From: an uncultured Lachnospiraceae bacterium
GTDB lineage: Bacteria > Bacillota > Clostridia > Lachnospirales > Lachnospiraceae
DNA length: 52,027 bases
Reading direction: 5' to 3'
Assembly (NCBI GenBank): GCA_946616835.1
Contig: CAMOJK010000006.1
Span: 1-52,027, forward strand
Of the stretch, positions 13,104-37,316 are shown in pieces. The position numbers and the translations under genes were made by a program. The number at the start of each line of letters is the position of its first letter. The first letter of the stretch is position 1. The notes under the pieces were generated by a model. The model worked only from the letters and a program-made list of their open reading frames with translations. It was not told the DNA's origin and made no database searches.

Positions 13104-15824
13104 CTACTGCTCCGGAGTGATCTCCGTCCAGCATTCCGGATCCAGGATATTATTCTCCACATGATACCAGAGGGCATCATATGGCCAAAGTCTGGTATCT
13201 TCATTTCCCTGGACCTTGGTATCCATGGCGCATATAACATCCGCGCCCTCGTCACTGTGTGAAACTATGGCATTGCCCGTATAAGGGTTGACAGGGTTGT
13301 CGATCAGCCCTTCCAGTGCCATTACCGGAGTATCCGCATTTGTCTTAAAAGAATCGTCCGTAACAAAACCGGTCGCCCCGAAATCCTTTACCATAAACAA
13401 GGCATTTACTCCCTCCACATCCAGTTCGTCAAGGAAAAGCATATCTTCAAACTGTCCCAGCGCCCTTCCGTGGTCAGCCACGATTATTATCCTGGTATTG
13501 TCATAAACCCCTTCATCACGGAGCTTGTCAAACCACCTTCCCAGAGACATTATAGCCGCCATATTGCAGTGATAATGGGATATGCCATATTTACGGTTAT
13601 CTGTCCCATAATCCAGCACTTTACCATCAAGCACCGGATTTTCATCCCAGTCTGCAAATTCGGAATTATCAACAGTCTCTGCCGGTGTATAATCCGGAAG
13701 CTGAAGTATGGCAGGTGCATGGGTGGTGTTATTGTCCATCATAAACAGAGTATTTCCCGTCACACCTTCGGTAACAGTGACCTCCGGCATGTGTTCCAAT
13801 ACTTCCCACGCTTTCAGGAAATCATTGTTTGCGGCCAGGGGCGCTGCCGCCATGTACTCACCGCTATCGTAAACCTCGTCCTGCAGCATGGCAGGTACCA
13901 CTTTAAAAATGCTGTAGAAGAAAAAATTCCTCTCTATCATTGCCAGATAATTGTCCTGTCCTATGGACGGCGTATATCTGCCCTCCACATTTACGGCATT
14001 TACATACGGGTATTCATCAAAAACCGACAGGTCAGACGGGATACAGTAGTTAGCATATGGCGGATCCCAGGTGGTCACGCGGTATCCTTCCTCTCCTAAA
14101 ACCCTTGGAAGAAGCGTTATCGCCTCATTCTGCTTATCACGCAGCTTCACATCATCCCTTGCATTAAGTGCCGCCGCCGAATAATCATACCCGCCATACA
14201 GCGCCGGCGAGCCATAGCAGGTAGTCTGCCCGTATGAAACCGTATTAGGGTAATATACGAAGCCGTCATACTGATTTTTAAGTTCAGGCTTTTCAGCAAA
14301 CAGGTACGGAATATATGCGCCTATCGCCCTGTCCAGCATTATTACCACTACATTTTTCCCATCCTTTGAAAGCGGGATGGTAAGGTCCGCCTCAGCCGCA
14401 GCCGCTTCTTTTGCTTCAACTATACGCTTTAACTCTGCGCCGGTCTTTGACATATTGACGATACATATTCCAAGCAGGGAAAGAATAACGACAATGACGA
14501 TATATTTCATCCAGTTCCTTCGAAGCTTCCAGAGGACAAACGAAGCCCCTGCAATGCCTCCTGCCATAAGAAGATTGACCACGCGCAGCATTTTTCCGTA
14601 TTTCGGAACATGGTCAAAGGAAAGCTCATTTGAAACGGTTCCTATATCCGGCTTTACCAGCATGAAATCTGCTATAAACATAAGCAAAAGCACAAATAAT
14701 ATGAGGCTGTATAGGCCTTTACCCCTTTTGTCGGAAATATAAAGAATGATCCCTCCCCAGACAATAAACACGCCTGCATACATCACCACAGTCGTAAAAA
14801 CATAATGAAGGGGCGACATATAATTATAGACATTCACAAAATCCACCGGAGACGCGGATATCACCGACAACGGGATATACACGCCACAAAAAAGCGTAAG
14901 CGCAATCTCTAACAGCACAGGCAGTGCCTTTGGCGTCACTGTGCCGTCCGGTTTTATCGCATGCTTCTTTTTCCATAAAAGCAGTACAAGGGGCGAATTA
15001 AACACGCAGATAAGGACAAACCATATAAGAAAAGCTTCATAATCCCGTCCCTGTCTTCCGAACCACGAGGTATACATTTTGCCGGATATTAAAAGATACA
15101 GGACGAATGCCACGGAAATACCGCTGAGCAGGATTCCAAGAAACCTTGCAGGGTTCTTTATATGCTTCATAACTATATTCTTGCACAGCGAGTAAAGATT
15201 GTTCATGGTCCAGTACAGAACAAGTCCTGATGGGCTCTGATACAGAAGTACCAGGAAAACAGATGCAAGAATATATATCTGCAGCTTCGCCCGCAAGGGA
15301 AGATCTCTGGTATACACAAATCCGGATACACAGTTTATCACTGTCATAAGTATAGGAAGCAGATTTATATGGATAACTCCAAGAGCTATCAGCCCATCCG
15401 GTCTGCCCAGATCCGCTATCGGTCCAAAGCTTATCCCCGAAAGCAGTGAAAGAGTTGACAGATAATGATATCCGGCTATAAAGAACGGAATCTGCAGAAG
15501 AAGCGAGAATGCACTGCGCAGTGCATACAGAGGGCGGTAATCCATCTCTCTGTAATAAGCATTCTCTATCATGTAACGCTCGTCGCCCTTGAAAAACTTC
15601 CTGATATGCTTAAGCCACTTTTCCATGGCTTTTTGTTTGTTCTGCTCGCTTTCCTGTATAGCATCAGAACGCAGGTAAAGAGGCAGTACAAGGGTGCTTA
15701 CAGTAAGGCTCACCGCAATGATAGCCACACCTGCATTCCCGAAAAAGGAATACATTACCCAGAAGATGGTTTCTATAAGATATTCAATAGGTTTTATTAT
15801 CAGATTGTAAAGCAAATCAGACAT
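13104..15824 (-). CDS. YidC/Oxa1-type membrane domain fused to extracellular sulfatase/phosphotransferase-fold domain
   Basis: 906 residues in three parts. Residues 1-225 resemble YidC/Oxa1 insertases: two N-terminal hydrophobic segments, LPLYLRSDAIQ with Arg52 at the hydrophilic-groove position, a cytoplasmic charged loop (55-95), and the hallmark YQSPSGLVLYWTMNNLYSL at 195-213. Residues about 226-456 hold roughly seven more membrane segments. Residues about 485-906 form an alkaline-phosphatase-superfamily (sulfatase, LtaS, EptA-like) domain: NVVVIMLDR with metal ligand Asp498, nucleophile candidates Thr534/535 in YGQTTCYGSP, NNTTHAP (His702), and IIIVADHGR with Asp784/His785. It probably transfers or cleaves a phospho group on an envelope polymer outside the cell. 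The ATG has GGAG directly against it; TTG at codon 4 has better spacing. The GT-C-like gene lies upstream. Confidence 0.82.
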   Translation of the reverse strand: MSDLLYNLIIKPIEYLIETIFWVMYSFFGNAGVAIIAVSLTVSTLVLPLYLRSDAIQESEQNKQKAMEKWLKHIRKFFKGDERYMIENAYYREMDYRPLYALRSAFSLLLQIPFFIAGYHYLSTLSLLSGISFGPIADLGRPDGLIALGVIHINLLPILMTVINCVSGFVYTRDLPLRAKLQIYILASVFLVLLYQSPSGLVLYWTMNNLYSLCKNIVMKHIKNPARFLGILLSGISVAFVLYLLISGKMYTSWFGRQGRDYEAFLIWFVLICVFNSPLVLLLWKKKHAIKPDGTVTPKALPVLLEIALTLFCGVYIPLSVISASPVDFVNVYNYMSPLHYVFTTVVMYAGVFIVWGGIILYISDKRGKGLYSLILFVLLLMFIADFMLVKPDIGTVSNELSFDHVPKYGKMLRVVNLLMAGGIAGASFVLWKLRRNWMKYIVIVVILSLLGICIVNMSKTGAELKRIVEAKEAAAAEADLTIPLSKDGKNVVVIMLDRAIGAYIPYLFAEKPELKNQYDGFVYYPNTVSYGQTTCYGSPALYGGYDYSAAALNARDDVKLRDKQNEAITLLPRVLGEEGYRVTTWDPPYANYCIPSDLSVFDEYPYVNAVNVEGRYTPSIGQDNYLAMIERNFFFYSIFKVVPAMLQDEVYDSGEYMAAAPLAANNDFLKAWEVLEHMPEVTVTEGVTGNTLFMMDNNTTHAPAILQLPDYTPAETVDNSEFADWDENPVLDGKVLDYGTDNRKYGISHYHCNMAAIMSLGRWFDKLRDEGVYDNTRIIIVADHGRALGQFEDMLFLDELDVEGVNALFMVKDFGATGFVTDDSFKTNADTPVMALEGLIDNPVNPYTGNAIVSHSDEGADVICAMDTKVQGNEDTRLWPYDALWYHVENNILDPECWTEITPEQ

Positions 15825-15863
15825 CTCCGCCGCTTAAATTTTACTTACTAAAGCTTACCGCTC

Positions 15864-15869
15864 ATTATA
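15864..15869 (-). promoter_or_regulatory. Candidate -10 element for the YidC-sulfatase gene
   Basis: Minus strand TATAAT inside GGTATATAATG, about 40 bases before the start codon. No convincing -35 is seen, so the gene may be co-transcribed with 15990-17462, or have a weak own promoter. Confidence 0.35.
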
Positions 15870-15989
15870 TACCACTAATATCCTCACACCGGCTGCTTAC
15901 CTGACGATAGTGCCGTTTGCCAGGCAGTTCTTACGAAAACGCCCCAAACTATGGTATATTTTCGGAACCATTCACACGGTACCGGCACT

Positions 15990-17462
15990 TTATTCGTACA
16001 TATCAAGATGATACTCTTCATTCATGGAAGGATCCGGACATACCGTCACCTCCAGCTCATGAGTAAGCACCCCATGAGCATAAAGAGTATCCGCCATTGC
16101 GTTTCCCATGCCATACGCATGTGGCCAGTTATCCCCATCTGCCTCAAAAAAGAATTCCGGCACCCTCAAGTCCACACTTGATTCTCCGCTTTCATCAGCA
16201 CTTTTCAGCTGTCCTATGTAATCATCCATAAGAGCCTTACATACTGTCGGAGGATATCCCTGCCAGTTAGTTTCCCTGAAGGTATGCGTCCCAAAGTATG
16301 TATTTGAAAACAGAATAAAAAAGAGCAGAGGCATAACTGCTGCCCCTTTGGGAAAATCCTTAAGCACAGACAGCGCAGACATAAATGTAATTATAAACGC
16401 AAAAAATGCCACTGCAAATATCACGCCGCTCCTCTGCATATGCTCACTTCCGGTAACAGAACATAACAGGATCAAAAATACAGAACTCACCACTGCACAA
16501 ACAGCGGCAGTAAGTGCCTGCTCCCATACCGGCTTTACATTCTCTCTGTCCCTCTTCTTTTTTGTTACCAGCATGATAAGCCCAAGAGCCGTCACGCCAG
16601 CCATAACGGCAGATGTCTGGAGATTAAGAGATGAGATCCAACCGAAGAACAGCCTGATACTTTCGCTAAGCGGTATTCCGCCGCTATTGGAGGCTGCGCG
16701 TCCGCCGTTTACCTCAAAGAATATAGATATAAACCATACAGCAATAACAGAAGCCGGGAAGATCATGCTCCTGCAGACTTTTTTATTTTTTATCAGGTCA
16801 AAAAGTATCCTTGCTCCCATATAGGATATGAGGATAATGGTCTGGAAAAAGTCCGAAAAAACTGCGAGGTATACAAGCAGTATCACAAAACCATCCTGCT
16901 TTTTTCCTGTCAGGAAGCTGCCGTCCTTATTTCCCATAAAATAAAGGACCAGCGATGAATTCAGTATATTTGGCAAGACATAGAAAAAATATCCCGTAAG
17001 ATTTGAAGCATAAAATAAGTATGTATTATCGCTCCGAAACCTCCTGAAAATACTGAAATGAAAAAGTAGAAAAAACGCGGTCAGCATATAAATAGCAAGC
17101 TTCCCTGCATCACTTCTGTTCCTTAGCAATCTGTAAAACATATACATATATATTACTATGGAAAAACTAATGAATATTGCATTTATGGTTGTTATTGACT
17201 GAAGGTAGTCTCTGGTAACGGGATAAAGAGTATAGATACCCACCCCTGAAACCATGGACATAATAGTCTCCGGGAGTATACGGCTCGGATTCCAGGCTTT
17301 CCATAAAGGATATGCATTTCTATGCCATGAAATATAGAGCCAGTCATCACCATCCCAGACCTGCAGTGGGTGGATCACAGAAAAAAAGATATACAAAAAG
17401 CCGAAAGCAGCAAGCCAGAAAGCAGCCTCAGCAAATTTATACTTCTTTTCAACAGTAATCAT
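15990..17462 (-). CDS. Polytopic membrane protein, GT-C glycosyltransferase-like
   Basis: 490 residues with about ten to twelve hydrophobic segments and no recognisable soluble enzyme domain until a hydrophilic C-terminal tail of about 80 residues (after ETNWQGYPPTV). After the first membrane helix comes HPLQVWDGDDWLYISWHR (residues about 31-48); an acidic DxDD-type motif in the first extracellular loop is what GT-C transferases using polyprenyl-phosphate sugars show. It resembles the uncharacterised DUF6056-like polytopic families as far as I can judge. ATG at 17462 has AGAGG upstream, favoured over one ten codons earlier. It precedes the YidC-sulfatase fusion by 165 bases, suggesting a shared envelope role. 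Confidence 0.6.
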   Translation of the reverse strand: MITVEKKYKFAEAAFWLAAFGFLYIFFSVIHPLQVWDGDDWLYISWHRNAYPLWKAWNPSRILPETIMSMVSGVGIYTLYPVTRDYLQSITTINAIFISFSIVIYMYMFYRLLRNRSDAGKLAIYMLTAFFLLFHFSIFRRFRSDNTYLFYASNLTGYFFYVLPNILNSSLVLYFMGNKDGSFLTGKKQDGFVILLVYLAVFSDFFQTIILISYMGARILFDLIKNKKVCRSMIFPASVIAVWFISIFFEVNGGRAASNSGGIPLSESIRLFFGWISSLNLQTSAVMAGVTALGLIMLVTKKKRDRENVKPVWEQALTAAVCAVVSSVFLILLCSVTGSEHMQRSGVIFAVAFFAFIITFMSALSVLKDFPKGAAVMPLLFFILFSNTYFGTHTFRETNWQGYPPTVCKALMDDYIGQLKSADESGESSVDLRVPEFFFEADGDNWPHAYGMGNAMADTLYAHGVLTHELEVTVCPDPSMNEEYHLDMYE

Positions 17463-17678
17463 TTCGCCTCTTTCCGTCGCATTTTCATGCAACTACATGA
17501 AGAATTTGAGTATAATCACCCGTTTCTTACAAAATCATGCGCTAACAACTTTACCACACCGAAGGTTGTTTGGCAACTTTTATGCCTATCCGGTGCATAA
17601 TTGTGTTAAAATTAATCCGTTATTCAGGTTACACCAGATAGACTCAAAGGAGATTTTAGTCGGTTCCGGAAACGCTTG

Positions 17679-17684
17679 TATAAT
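17679..17684 (+). promoter_or_regulatory. Candidate -10 of the thioredoxin reductase-like gene
   Basis: TATAAT preceded by CTTG, about 55 bases before the start; the -35 candidate TTAGTC (17656-17661) is weak at 17-base spacing. The remaining 17463-17737 interval shows no other clear feature. Confidence 0.45.
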
Positions 17685-17737
17685 ACGATAAATACCGGTA
17701 TGGAATGATTTAGAAAATAATTATCAGGAGGTATCTT

Positions 17738-18643
17738 ATGAAGGATATAATCATAGTCGGAGGCGGCACCGCAGGGCTTACGGCTGCTATATACGCAAGG
17801 CGTGCCGGCAGAAGTGTCCTTGTAATAGAAGCTGACAACTGCGGCGGCCAGATAATCAACACCCCTGAAATAGAAAACTACCCGGGCATAAAAAATATCT
17901 CCGGCTTAGAATTTGCAAACGGATTAAAGGACCAGGCAGAGAGCCTTGGAGCAGTGATAGAAAACGCAAAAGTGACAGGGCTTGAAACCAAAGAAGGAAA
18001 GGTAAAAATTCTGCACACCACAGCCGGCGACCGGGAATGCCTTGCAGTTATACTAGCCACAGGAGCGAAAAACAGACATCTTGGACTGGAAAACGAAGAA
18101 GAATTTACAGGCTGCGGAGTATCCTACTGTGCGACCTGCGACGGTGCTTTCTTTAAGGACAGTATCGTGGCCGTAAATGGTGGTGGAAATACAGCCATAG
18201 AGGACGCATTCTTCCTCTCTAACTACTGCAGCAAGGTCTACCTGATCCACAGGCGTGATTCTTTCAGAGCCGATGCAAAAGAAGTTGCAAAATTAAAAGC
18301 AAAAGAAAATGTTGAGTTTATACTCAACTCCACCATTACCTCCCTGGGTGGTAACGGTGATCTGGAATATATCGAGCTTGAGAATAAGCTTAACCATAAT
18401 AAGAGCAAGCTGGAAGTCGAAGGACTTTTCATTGCTATTGGACAGACGCCTGACAATAAATCCTTTGCTGATTTTGTTAATCTGGATGAAAAGGGATATA
18501 TAGTAGCCGGTGAGGATTGCAAAACCGCCACAAAGGGCATATTTGCAGCAGGAGACTGCCGCACAAAATCAGTAAGACAGCTTACCACCGCCGCAGCAGA
18601 CGGTGCAGTGGCAGCCCTCGCCGCAGCAGCATACTGCGGATAA
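17738..18643 (+). CDS. trxB: Thioredoxin reductase-like flavoprotein
   Basis: Class II pyridine nucleotide-disulfide oxidoreductase passing electrons from NADPH through FAD to a disulfide partner. The 301 residues show the N-terminal FAD dinucleotide motif IIVGGGTAGLTAAIYARRAG, the redox pair CATC in GVSYCATCDGAFF (near residue 130), the second nucleotide motif VAVNGGGNTAIEDA with HRRDSFRA, and the C-terminal FAD motif GIFAAGDCRTKSVRQLTTAAADG. Length matches low-molecular-weight TrxB. AGGAGG lies seven bases before ATG. No thioredoxin gene is adjacent, so the partner (thioredoxin, NrdH or ferredoxin-type) is unresolved; lone paralogues of this type are common in clostridia. Confidence 0.92.
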   Translation: MKDIIIVGGGTAGLTAAIYARRAGRSVLVIEADNCGGQIINTPEIENYPGIKNISGLEFANGLKDQAESLGAVIENAKVTGLETKEGKVKILHTTAGDRECLAVILATGAKNRHLGLENEEEFTGCGVSYCATCDGAFFKDSIVAVNGGGNTAIEDAFFLSNYCSKVYLIHRRDSFRADAKEVAKLKAKENVEFILNSTITSLGGNGDLEYIELENKLNHNKSKLEVEGLFIAIGQTPDNKSFADFVNLDEKGYIVAGEDCKTATKGIFAAGDCRTKSVRQLTTAAADGAVAALAAAAYCG

Positions 18644-34705: not shown

Positions 34706-35860
34706 CTACTTTCCCTCTTCCGCCAGGGGTGATGTCTCATCCCAGGCCAATAGTCTCTCCGGCAGGTATCTTTCTGCCGACTCCCATATTAAGTACTTCG
34801 GCTTCGTAGTCTGTATCAGCGGCAGGTCATAATTATCATGTGTTGCTACATACGTGTATTTAAACGCTCCTGCCATATAGTAATAAAAGCCGGAGAATGA
34901 ATCACATTTTATAACCAGGGTATCCCCTTCTTCCCTGTCCGTCATAAGACGCAGTATCTTTGAATCAGGCTCCGAAAAAATATGATATTCAAGTATTTCC
35001 GGGGTCCGATCCACATAGCCGCTTAACTGATATTCCGTATCTTCACCGAGAACATCTGTCATCTTTATCAGCCGTTCAAGGTCTGCCGCATATCCCATTG
35101 GCGCCTGCTCCAGATCATCAAGATCGGCAGCCTTTATGCCACACAGCTCATCCAATAAAACTCCCGCTGTCACATAGGCCCCCCTGTGGTTCCAATGAGT
35201 ATCATAGCGGAAATAAATATCCTTACACGTACCATTATCCTCATCTTCCGCCTTTTGTGCAAGCATTGCTTCTGTTGGATCGATTATCACAAGATCAGAA
35301 TTTGCCCTCAGATAATCCTCTATCTGCTGCATACAGCTGGGATCAGCATGCTCGCCGTACCTATCCGGCATATATTCGGGATATACCGTGGACTTATTCG
35401 GAATGAACAAAAACACAAGAGTGGTCCCTCTGGCTTTCAGTTCATCACTTGTTGCGGTCAGGTCCGCACAGATCCCGGCCAGTTCCTCTTCTGTCAGAAG
35501 GTTTTCACCTGTATAGTCTGCCAGCGGATCCCCCTCAGTCTCACTGTTGAAATAAAGGAAATTGTTTTTTCCTACTATAACTTTCCCTATCTCACTTTCA
35601 TGGAAAGCGTACATATCTATGGAATTATTTGCCGTGATCAGCTGACTCCTGAAAGGAAGGTGATCCTCAACATAGGATGTCACAGCTCCCGGATAGTCCA
35701 ACAGCGGGGTTTCTTCTCCCGGCCATACAGCAAGCGGCCTTCCCTCTCCTGTAGGGTCGTCATCCGTAATGGCAGGCGAAAACGCCAGCCATAAAGGATA
35801 CGGCAGGAAAAGAAAAACTATCATCATGATCATCCAGCTTATTTTTATGCTTTTTTTCAT
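34706..35860 (-). CDS. AlgX/AlgJ-like SGNH (DHHW-type) extracellular protein
   Basis: 384 residues: a cytoplasmic basic start, one N-terminal membrane anchor (about 10-28), then an extracellular SGNH-hydrolase-like domain. Seen motifs are EDHLPFRSQLI, VGKNNFLYFNSE, FIPNKSTVYPEYMP and the DTHWNHRGAY block (near residue 218), whose Asp/Thr-His-Trp-Asn is diagnostic of AlgX/AlgJ and DltD-like acetylation partners. It should work with the MBOAT acyltransferase just upstream to O-acetylate a secreted polysaccharide. The ATG at 35860 is used; a TTG four codons upstream has AAGGA directly against it. Confidence 0.88.
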   Translation of the reverse strand: MKKSIKISWMIMMIVFLFLPYPLWLAFSPAITDDDPTGEGRPLAVWPGEETPLLDYPGAVTSYVEDHLPFRSQLITANNSIDMYAFHESEIGKVIVGKNNFLYFNSETEGDPLADYTGENLLTEEELAGICADLTATSDELKARGTTLVFLFIPNKSTVYPEYMPDRYGEHADPSCMQQIEDYLRANSDLVIIDPTEAMLAQKAEDEDNGTCKDIYFRYDTHWNHRGAYVTAGVLLDELCGIKAADLDDLEQAPMGYAADLERLIKMTDVLGEDTEYQLSGYVDRTPEILEYHIFSEPDSKILRLMTDREEGDTLVIKCDSFSGFYYYMAGAFKYTYVATHDNYDLPLIQTTKPKYLIWESAERYLPERLLAWDETSPLAEEGK

Positions 35861-35894
35861 TCTCTGATACAATCCTTAGTCTTCGTATTTTAAC

Positions 35895-37316
35895 TCAAAA
35901 TCTGAAATATATGAACGGATTATATGTTCCGGCCGCAAGCGTTATCACGCAATAAATAAATATTATCCCACAGAATACCAGTTCTGGTATGCTGCCCTTC
36001 CATTTTTCTGAAAGATGCAGTTTCTGCCCTGCCAGCTGAAGGGGGCCGCATCCAATTATTGCCAGAATACCAATGATAACTTTCTTAGCCGAAAGGAAAC
36101 GGTATGTCACATACGGAACAAGCTCCGGTGCATCATAGATAAGGAACATCTTTTTTCCTATGACATACAAAGCATTCTGTGCCGTAGTAGAAGAAAACAT
36201 CACCCAGCCTATAACCACAACAAACAGTGTATAAATATGTCCTACTATTCTGTGTTCATCCAGCCACTTTTTAAGGAACGCTCTTTCTATCACCATAAAG
36301 AAAGCATAATAAACACCCCACAGCACAAACTGGTATGCAGCTCCATGCCAAAGTCCCGTAAGGAAAAATACTATAGCAAGATTTATGCAAGTCCTGACTT
36401 TGCCCCGCCTGCTGCCACCCAGAGGAATATAAACATATTCCCTGAACCATGCTCCCAGCGTCATATGCCACCTTCGCCAGAACTCACTGACTGATGCTGA
36501 CATATATGGGTAATTAAAGTTTTCCGGAATGGTAAATCCGAACATTTTACCCAAACCTATAGCCATGTCAGAATATCCTGAAAAATCATAATATATTTGC
36601 AGTGTATAGAAAATTGCGCTGGTCCATGCATAAAGAGGTGCCATCTGCCGGCCCTCCATACTCCAAAAATACGCAGTAGACACAGCAAGGGTATTTGAAA
36701 TTATAACCTTCTTGGCCAGACCATAAATAAACCGTCTGAAGCCTTCTACGGTAAGCTCTGTATTCACCTCACGATTTGCCAGTTGTGCTTCCATATCCTC
36801 ATAGCGCACAATGGGACCGGCTATCAGTTGCGGAAAAAACGAAATATACAGAGCCATACTGAAGAGATTCTTCTGAGCCGGATATTTCCCCCTATAAAGG
36901 TCTATGATGTAACTCATGGCCTGAAAGGTAAAAAAAGATATGCCGATTGGCAGTGAAATATTTTTGGGCTCAAGGGGAGCATTCCTAAAAAATATATCAT
37001 TAAGAATATTTATGAAAAAATCACAGTATTTGTAATACCCCAGCAGGAGAATATTCCCGCCAATCCCCACTGTCAGCCAAATTCGCTTAAGTACTAAATT
37101 CGACGAAGCATCTGCCCTGCCTATAAGCAGTCCGGCTGCATAATTAAACAAAATCGAAAATATCATAAGAAGAACATAAACCGGCTCTCCCCACGCATAG
37201 AAAACAAGACTTGCTGCAAGAAGCAGCAGGTTACAGGCTTTGCCCCTAAACACTCTTGATAAAACAAGAGTGATCGGCAGAAACACCCATAAAAATATCA
37301 TCGAACTAAATACCAT
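35895..37316 (-). CDS. MBOAT family acyltransferase (AlgI/PatA type)
   Basis: 473 residues with about eleven hydrophobic segments; moves acyl groups across the membrane to an extracellular polymer. Family marks are VFSSMIFLWVFLPITL at the start, SFFTFQAMSYIIDLYRG, FPQLIAGPIVRY, DFSGYSDMAIGLG, FWRRWHMTLGAWFREYVYIP and the catalytic His in FFLTGLWHGAAYQFV (near residue 320). Length matches AlgI. It is 34 bases before the AlgX/J-like gene, the standard two-gene acetylation module. The acceptor polysaccharide is not encoded next to it. Confidence 0.93.
   Translation of the reverse strand: MVFSSMIFLWVFLPITLVLSRVFRGKACNLLLLAASLVFYAWGEPVYVLLMIFSILFNYAAGLLIGRADASSNLVLKRIWLTVGIGGNILLLGYYKYCDFFINILNDIFFRNAPLEPKNISLPIGISFFTFQAMSYIIDLYRGKYPAQKNLFSMALYISFFPQLIAGPIVRYEDMEAQLANREVNTELTVEGFRRFIYGLAKKVIISNTLAVSTAYFWSMEGRQMAPLYAWTSAIFYTLQIYYDFSGYSDMAIGLGKMFGFTIPENFNYPYMSASVSEFWRRWHMTLGAWFREYVYIPLGGSRRGKVRTCINLAIVFFLTGLWHGAAYQFVLWGVYYAFFMVIERAFLKKWLDEHRIVGHIYTLFVVVIGWVMFSSTTAQNALYVIGKKMFLIYDAPELVPYVTYRFLSAKKVIIGILAIIGCGPLQLAGQKLHLSEKWKGSIPELVFCGIIFIYCVITLAAGTYNPFIYFRF

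What the first reader, a model, noticed from the sequence alone, without database searches (positions are those of the whole stretch)
13104..17462. YidC/Oxa1 insertase domain fused to an extracellular sulfatase-fold enzyme, next to a GT-C-like protein
One unbroken 906-codon gene joins a YidC-type domain (Arg52 in the groove position; YQSPSGLVLYWTMNNLYSL at 195-213), about seven extra membrane helices, and an alkaline-phosphatase-superfamily domain with Asp498, Thr534/535, His702 and Asp784-His785. LtaS- and EptA-like enzymes have this fold, but a YidC half is not part of those families. The domain order puts the catalytic part outside. The upstream gene has a DGDDW acidic loop and GT-C-like topology. 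Together they may build or decorate an envelope polymer, with the YidC part acting as a lipid or protein conduit.
Basis: partly seen in the sequence, partly recalled or inferred. Interest (0 to 1): 0.8.

Follow-up and report, generated by a model that had tools for sequence, protein, structure and literature searches.

The report
YidC-sulfatase fusion for surface head groups
Gut and rumen bacteria carry an apparently undescribed enzyme in which a membrane-protein insertase domain is joined to an extracellular transferase domain, probably to move small charged groups such as aminoethylphosphonate or choline phosphate across the membrane and onto the cell surface.

The parts
13104..15824 (-). 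YidC-sulfatase fusion gene, 906 aa (type A)
   Evidence: Single ORF; Pfam 60KD_IMP and Sulfatase; model pLDDT 89.6
15162..15824 (-). YidC-fold membrane domain, residues 1-221; groove column residue 43 is Ser, not Arg/Lys
14964..15152 (-). two linking membrane helices, residues 225-287
   Evidence: Helices 225-246 and 262-287 in the model; hydropathy
14397..14924 (-). five membrane helices, residues 301-476, perhaps matching the membrane part of PbgA-like sulfatase-fold enzymes
   Evidence: Helices in the model; PbgA 6xlp and 6v8q aligned over residues 295-906, but at rmsd of about 15.5 A, so the helix match is loose
13107..14378 (-). sulfatase-fold catalytic domain, residues 483-906, with D498, T535, H702, D784, H785
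15990..17462 (-). upstream 490-aa membrane protein with a D-x-D-D-W motif; role in this system uncertain
   Evidence: No Pfam match over its cut-off; matches in 8 of 60 genomes, own included; D-x-D-D-W kept in the five proteins aligned

Best explanation
The gene encodes the outer half of a head-group transfer machine. Step 1 (inferred): a membrane-anchored PF04464 protein in the cytosol takes a CMP- or CDP-activated head group (CMP-aminoethylphosphonate in this genome; hydroxyethylphosphonate, choline or other amino-alcohols in others) and puts it on a membrane lipid. Step 2 (inferred): the YidC-derived domain lets that lipid or its head group cross the membrane. Step 3 (inferred from fold and residues): the sulfatase-fold domain, with a metal site and a Thr nucleophile as in LtaS and EptA, takes the head group from the lipid outside and transfers it to a surface glycan. 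Shown here: the folds, the conserved catalytic residues, the gene linkage and the fusions in three arrangements. Not shown: any activity, the lipid intermediate, the acceptor, the direction of transfer.
For: (1) Partner: a PF04464 protein family (A3) is within two genes of the fusion at 39 of the 68 loci that had a neighbour, 30 times directly upstream on the same strand; 26 of these 30 lie between a 10 bp overlap and a 15 bp gap. (2) Co-occurrence: in 246 genomes of the order, strong fusion matches (over 280 bits) occur in 5 and strong partner matches (over 580 bits) in the same 5 (few candidates were scored per genome); in 35 same-genus genomes 24 have both, 3 the fusion only, 0 the partner only, 8 neither (fusions counted by frame length). 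(3) Rosetta stone: the partner's cytosolic domain is homologous (E=5e-37, single comparison) to the middle of a 1241-aa ORF in this genome that holds YidC, PF04464 and Sulfatase in one chain; at 11 of 12 fetched second-tier places in other genomes an ORF joins YidC to PF04464, and six sulfatase-like genes lie by five of them. All five catalytic residues are kept in the 18 rows compared from the three arrangements. (4) Chemistry: the partner gene of this genome lies between an AEP aminotransferase and a CTP-transferase/PEP-mutase gene, followed by an NTP-transferase-like and a phosphonopyruvate decarboxylase gene; three of these four are over NCBIfam cut-offs. Locus L044 carries choline kinase, NTP-transferase and BCCT transporter. 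PEP mutase and the PF04464 family co-occur in 11 of 246 genomes (24 and 19 have each; p=3e-8). (5) E. coli YidC scrambles lipids in vitro (PMC10491306, a preprint, passages read).
Against: In this genome the window gene has no PF04464 partner beside it; its neighbours are housekeeping genes. At 29 of 68 loci no partner lies within two genes. Five paralogues share one full-length stand-alone partner in this draft, so pairing is not one to one. At 6 of the 11 YidC-PF04464 loci no sulfatase-fold gene was found in the stretch fetched, and one of the six counted has no Pfam match. Only 15 of 74 fusion loci hold a homologue of the AEP-operon genes, some of them weak or general. Eight of 29 ordinary YidC, all eight of this genus, also lack the groove Arg/Lys, so its loss is weak evidence for a new role. 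LtaS-like enzymes work without a YidC half. Genomes of one order are not independent, so the p-values overstate.
Confidence: 0.55

Rival explanations
1. The YidC half acts as an insertase or chaperone: it helps fold or position the fusion's own helices or a partner enzyme in the membrane, and moves no lipid. The catalytic half still decorates a glycan.
For: The fold is clearly YidC; the cytosolic helical hairpin is kept (helices 31-77 and 80-93); the groove charge can be dispensable for insertase function when the groove is otherwise hydrophilic (PMC8920935, abstract).
Against: LtaS/EptA relatives need no built-in insertase (established knowledge); the YidC part is fused now to the cytosolic enzyme, now to the outer enzyme, which fits a bridge between the two better than a self-chaperone; the groove charge is missing in 71 of 71 type A fusions.
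Confidence: 0.2
2. An LtaS-type enzyme that uses phosphatidylglycerol and adds or polymerises glycerol phosphate; the PF04464 partner makes a poly(glycerol phosphate)-like chain from CDP-glycerol.
For: LtaS and LtaP are among the structural matches and PF04464 is named for CDP-glycerol transferases.
Against: Activation genes identified beside the system are for phosphonates and choline; CDP-glycerol synthesis genes were not searched for systematically. The genome has four other Sulfatase-family proteins in frames of 617-830 aa that could be ordinary LtaS-type enzymes.
Confidence: 0.17
3. A hydrolase that removes or recycles phosphonate or phosphate esters outside the cell.
For: Choline sulfatase and phosphonate monoester hydrolase are among the top structural matches.
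Against: The nucleophile column is Thr in 71 of 71, as in LtaS and EptA, and not the Cys/Ser of formylglycine sulfatases (family knowledge, recalled); the linked genes identified are biosynthetic.
Confidence: 0.08

Closest known systems
LtaS/LtaP and EptA/MCR/PbgA membrane sulfatase-fold enzymes
   Same: Sulfatase-fold outer domain, metal-site residues and Thr, membrane helices before it
   Different: As recalled, those enzymes have no YidC half and no linked PF04464 transferase
YidC/Oxa1/SpoIIIJ insertases
   Different: Here part of an enzyme; groove Arg/Lys absent in 71 of 71; up to 10 fusion-length frames in one same-genus genome, G027
Phosphonyl tailoring (Pnt) and Lic phosphocholine decoration
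   Same: CMP-AEP or CDP-choline apparently made by PEP mutase/PntC-like or LicC/LicA-like enzymes
   Different: The Pnt steps after C-P bond formation are called enigmatic in PMC6697681, which identifies the nucleotidyltransferases and notes LicD-like transferases in the clusters (passages read); here a PF04464 protein plus YidC-sulfatase take that place
Three-step lipoteichoic-acid glycosylation (PMC5836110, seen in the search listing only)
   Same: As recalled: lipid-linked donor made inside, crossing, transfer outside
   Different: Sugar donors and other protein families (recalled)

Membership tests
YidC/Oxa1 insertase | Sequence profile over cut-off | tested here: met
   PF02096 73.8 bits, cut-off 35; but TIGR03592 76.5 bits, under its cut-off of 84.3
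YidC/Oxa1 insertase | Five-helix core with cytosolic two-helix hairpin | tested here: met
YidC/Oxa1 insertase | Positively charged residue in the groove, called strictly conserved in PMC8920935 (abstract read) | tested here: not met
   0 of 71 type A fusions; 21 of 29 ordinary YidC have it; 12 of 12 YidC-PF04464 proteins, the single-chain one included, have it. The domain is a YidC homologue but is not filed as a YidC insertase
YidC/Oxa1 insertase | Insertase activity | not testable with these tools
   -
LtaS/EptA-like transferases | Sulfatase fold of the outer domain | tested here: met
LtaS/EptA-like transferases | Metal-site Asp/Glu, Thr nucleophile, His, Asp-His | tested here: met
   D498, T535, H702, D784, H785 in 71 of 71; their equivalence to LtaS residues is recalled, not computed
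LtaS/EptA-like transferases | Uses a phospholipid head group as donor | not testable with these tools
   -
PF04464 (partner protein) | Profile over cut-off | tested here: met
   7 of 7 partner proteins scanned are over 22.1 bits
Phosphonyl tailoring pathway | PEP mutase, phosphonopyruvate decarboxylase, AEP aminotransferase and cytidylyltransferase together with the system | tested here: met
   C90 of this genome, beside the partner gene: three over NCBIfam cut-offs plus an NTP-transferase without a model over cut-off. The window gene itself lies elsewhere in the genome

The most novel reading that the evidence does not exclude
YidC-type insertases were recruited, perhaps in two separate lineages, as built-in lipid or head-group translocators that link a cytosolic CMP/CDP-head-group transferase to an extracytoplasmic transferase, forming a modular, in one form single-chain, trans-membrane assembly line for phosphonate and choline decoration of bacterial surfaces.
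Probability: 0.4. Interest if true: 0.92.

Novelty: new variant of a known kind. Interest (0 to 1): 0.8.

Why it matters
The later steps of bacterial phosphonate decoration were described as enigmatic (PMC6697681, passages read). This gives concrete candidates in gut and rumen bacteria, at loci where the head group can often be guessed from neighbouring genes. It would also be the first case known to me of a YidC-family fold built into a biosynthetic enzyme, and a natural test of the report that insertases scramble lipids (PMC10491306).

Tried and rejected
Considered and rejected: frame error or chimaeric contig (the same fusion at 74 loci in other records); the upstream gene as general partner (0 homologues in 74 loci); Arg52 as groove residue. 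Led nowhere: Pfam and NCBIfam gave no family over cut-off for the 490-aa protein; the promoter scan found no more sites than shuffles (11, mean 10.4); terminator-like sites were more than in shuffles (8, mean 3.8), none of them between the two genes. Literature: ten searches, seven of them naming YidC, listed no paper on this fusion; subscription journals are mostly not held. The tree shows three groups of YidC domains but cannot root them, so one or two recruitments cannot be told apart; row L101 was a wrong frame with a very long branch, was also among the 12 ordinary YidC, and was dropped from the count.

Limits and rows dropped. L012 (near copy), L029 (cut), L059 (broken match) and L035 (ORF caller took another frame) were left out of the 71-row alignment. 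Of 16 second-tier PF04464 places outside this genome, 12 were fetched; 11 show a YidC-PF04464 ORF, in L129 the ORF caller kept a frame of the other strand, and 4 (G209, G186:C166, G112, G221) were not fetched. Fusions in same-genus genomes were counted by open-frame length (whose list was cut). One search scored at most 3 candidates per genome and at most 7. In relatives, single-chain genes were judged by YidC and PF04464 matches in one frame; their sulfatase part was not tested.

Full report

Corrections. In the alignment with E. coli YidC and with ordinary YidC of related genomes, the conserved Arg column is residue 43. None of 71 fusions has Arg or Lys there (43 Asn, 26 Ser, 1 Cys, 1 Gly). 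Of 29 ordinary YidC, 16 have Arg, 5 Lys and 8 Tyr; the eight with Tyr are the eight rows from this genus. Absence of the charge therefore does not prove a lost insertase function, and PMC8920935 (abstract) reports that the charge is dispensable when the groove is otherwise hydrophilic.

The family. This draft genome (3.05 Mb, 85.6% complete) has six YidC-domain genes, and no ordinary one was found. Five are fusions of this kind, the other four 41-44% identical to the window protein; three of them lie within about 14 kb on contig C1, among glycosyltransferase-like and ABC-transporter-like genes. The sixth, on contig C55, holds YidC, PF04464 and Sulfatase in one 1241-aa chain. By record title most are Lachnospiraceae and other Clostridia of rumen and gut; four are Treponema or Spirochaetales bins. 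One same-genus genome (G027) has 10 fusion-length YidC frames, and another (G030) has eight within about 64 kb.

The recurrent partner. Neighbours of the fusion were clustered. One family stands out: a protein of about 430 aa with an N-terminal hydrophobic stretch (motif YIDPGTGSM or similar) and a PF04464 domain, found within two genes at 39 loci; the next largest cluster has 6 members. Of 73 loci with the fusion ORF, 68 had a neighbour to look at. Thirty copies are directly upstream on the same strand, and 26 of these lie between a 10 bp overlap and a 15 bp gap. Anywhere in the loci a homologue is present in 46 of 74, one of them only 24% identical. Across 246 genomes of the order the five with a strong fusion match are the five with a strong partner match, adjacent in four of them and not in this genome (Fisher p=1.4e-10). 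In the genus 24 of 35 have both, 3 the fusion only, none the partner only, 8 neither (p=7e-6). These p-values ignore kinship.

Three arrangements of the same modules. Type A: PF04464 protein plus YidC-sulfatase. Type B: YidC-PF04464 in one ORF of 625-710 aa, at 11 of 12 second-tier places fetched from other genomes; six sulfatase-like genes lie by five of them, and at the other six none was found in the stretch fetched. One of the six sulfatase-like genes has no Pfam match (L133, 732 aa) and another is over the Sulfatase cut-off; the rest rest on a local profile. Type C: all in one chain, in this genome and, judged by YidC and PF04464 in frames of 1200-1437 aa, in some relatives. The order in type C is YidC, PF04464, five helices, sulfatase, which would put PF04464 inside and the sulfatase outside (inferred from hydropathy). 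The five catalytic residues are kept in all 18 rows compared from the three types. Types B and C keep the groove Lys/Arg (12 of 12), type A does not. A tree puts 23 type A YidC domains in one group (support 98/91) and 12 of types B and C in another (100/100), apart from ordinary YidC.

The chemistry next door. In this genome the single full-length stand-alone partner (C90) lies in an apparent operon with AEP aminotransferase, CTP-transferase/PEP mutase, an NTP-transferase-like gene and phosphonopyruvate decarboxylase. Elsewhere similar sets occur by L127, L133 and L136 (PEP mutase over cut-off in all three; L127 genes by Pfam; the others by likeness only). L018 has PEP mutase, iron alcohol dehydrogenase and decarboxylase, which suggests hydroxyethylphosphonate. 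L044 has choline kinase, NTP-transferase and BCCT transporter, with homologues of the transporter in L048 and L055; L139 (type B) has choline kinase and NTP-transferase. L030 has an NTP-transferase fused to an aminotransferase-fold enzyme. Across 246 genomes PEP mutase over its cut-off is in 24, this PF04464 family (over 120 bits) in 19, both in 11; by coordinates the two lie within 3.5 kb in eight of the 11 and on different contigs in three. But only 15 of 74 fusion loci show a homologue of the AEP-operon genes by BLAST, and several of these are general NTP-transferases or one weak aminotransferase hit. Phosphonate is thus at most one of several head groups.

Mechanism. The activated compounds suggested are small alcohols or phosphonates on a cytidine nucleotide. 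A cytosolic PF04464 enzyme could move the head group onto a lipid; a YidC fold, which scrambles lipids in vitro in the E. coli protein (PMC10491306, passages), could let it cross; an EptA/LtaS-like domain could pass it to a glycan. That the YidC module is tied sometimes to the inner and sometimes to the outer enzyme is the best argument for a bridging role. Donor, acceptor, order and direction are all inferred.

Verdict. A real and widespread enzyme architecture, apparently undescribed as far as ten literature searches show, with a strong genomic link to surface head-group decoration. It is filed as a new variant of a known kind because each enzymatic module has known relatives and no activity has been shown.

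Noticed in passing
   Followed up: no
L105, L107, L109, L110, L112-L115: Ordinary YidC of this genus has Tyr where the groove Arg called strictly conserved should be (8 of 8 rows).
   Followed up: partly
L010:10368-12197 and 16260-18221: Two genes for secreted or lipoprotein-like proteins with a similar C-terminal ending flank the single-chain YidC-PF04464-sulfatase gene.
   Followed up: no
34706-37316: MBOAT acyltransferase next to an AlgX-like SGNH protein, perhaps acetylation of an envelope polymer.
   Followed up: partly
G030:C73:489753-553979: Eight YidC frames of fusion length in about 64 kb of one genome.
   Followed up: no
L030:4944-6743: NTP-transferase fused to a CobD/HisC-like aminotransferase-fold enzyme upstream of the partner; may make CDP-ethanolamine or similar.
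   Followed up: partly
15990-17462: The 490-aa D-x-D-D-W membrane protein is a narrow family (8 of 60 genomes, own included); in G005 and G009 a match lies on the same contig as a YidC-PF04464 frame of 1216-1376 aa.
   Followed up: partly
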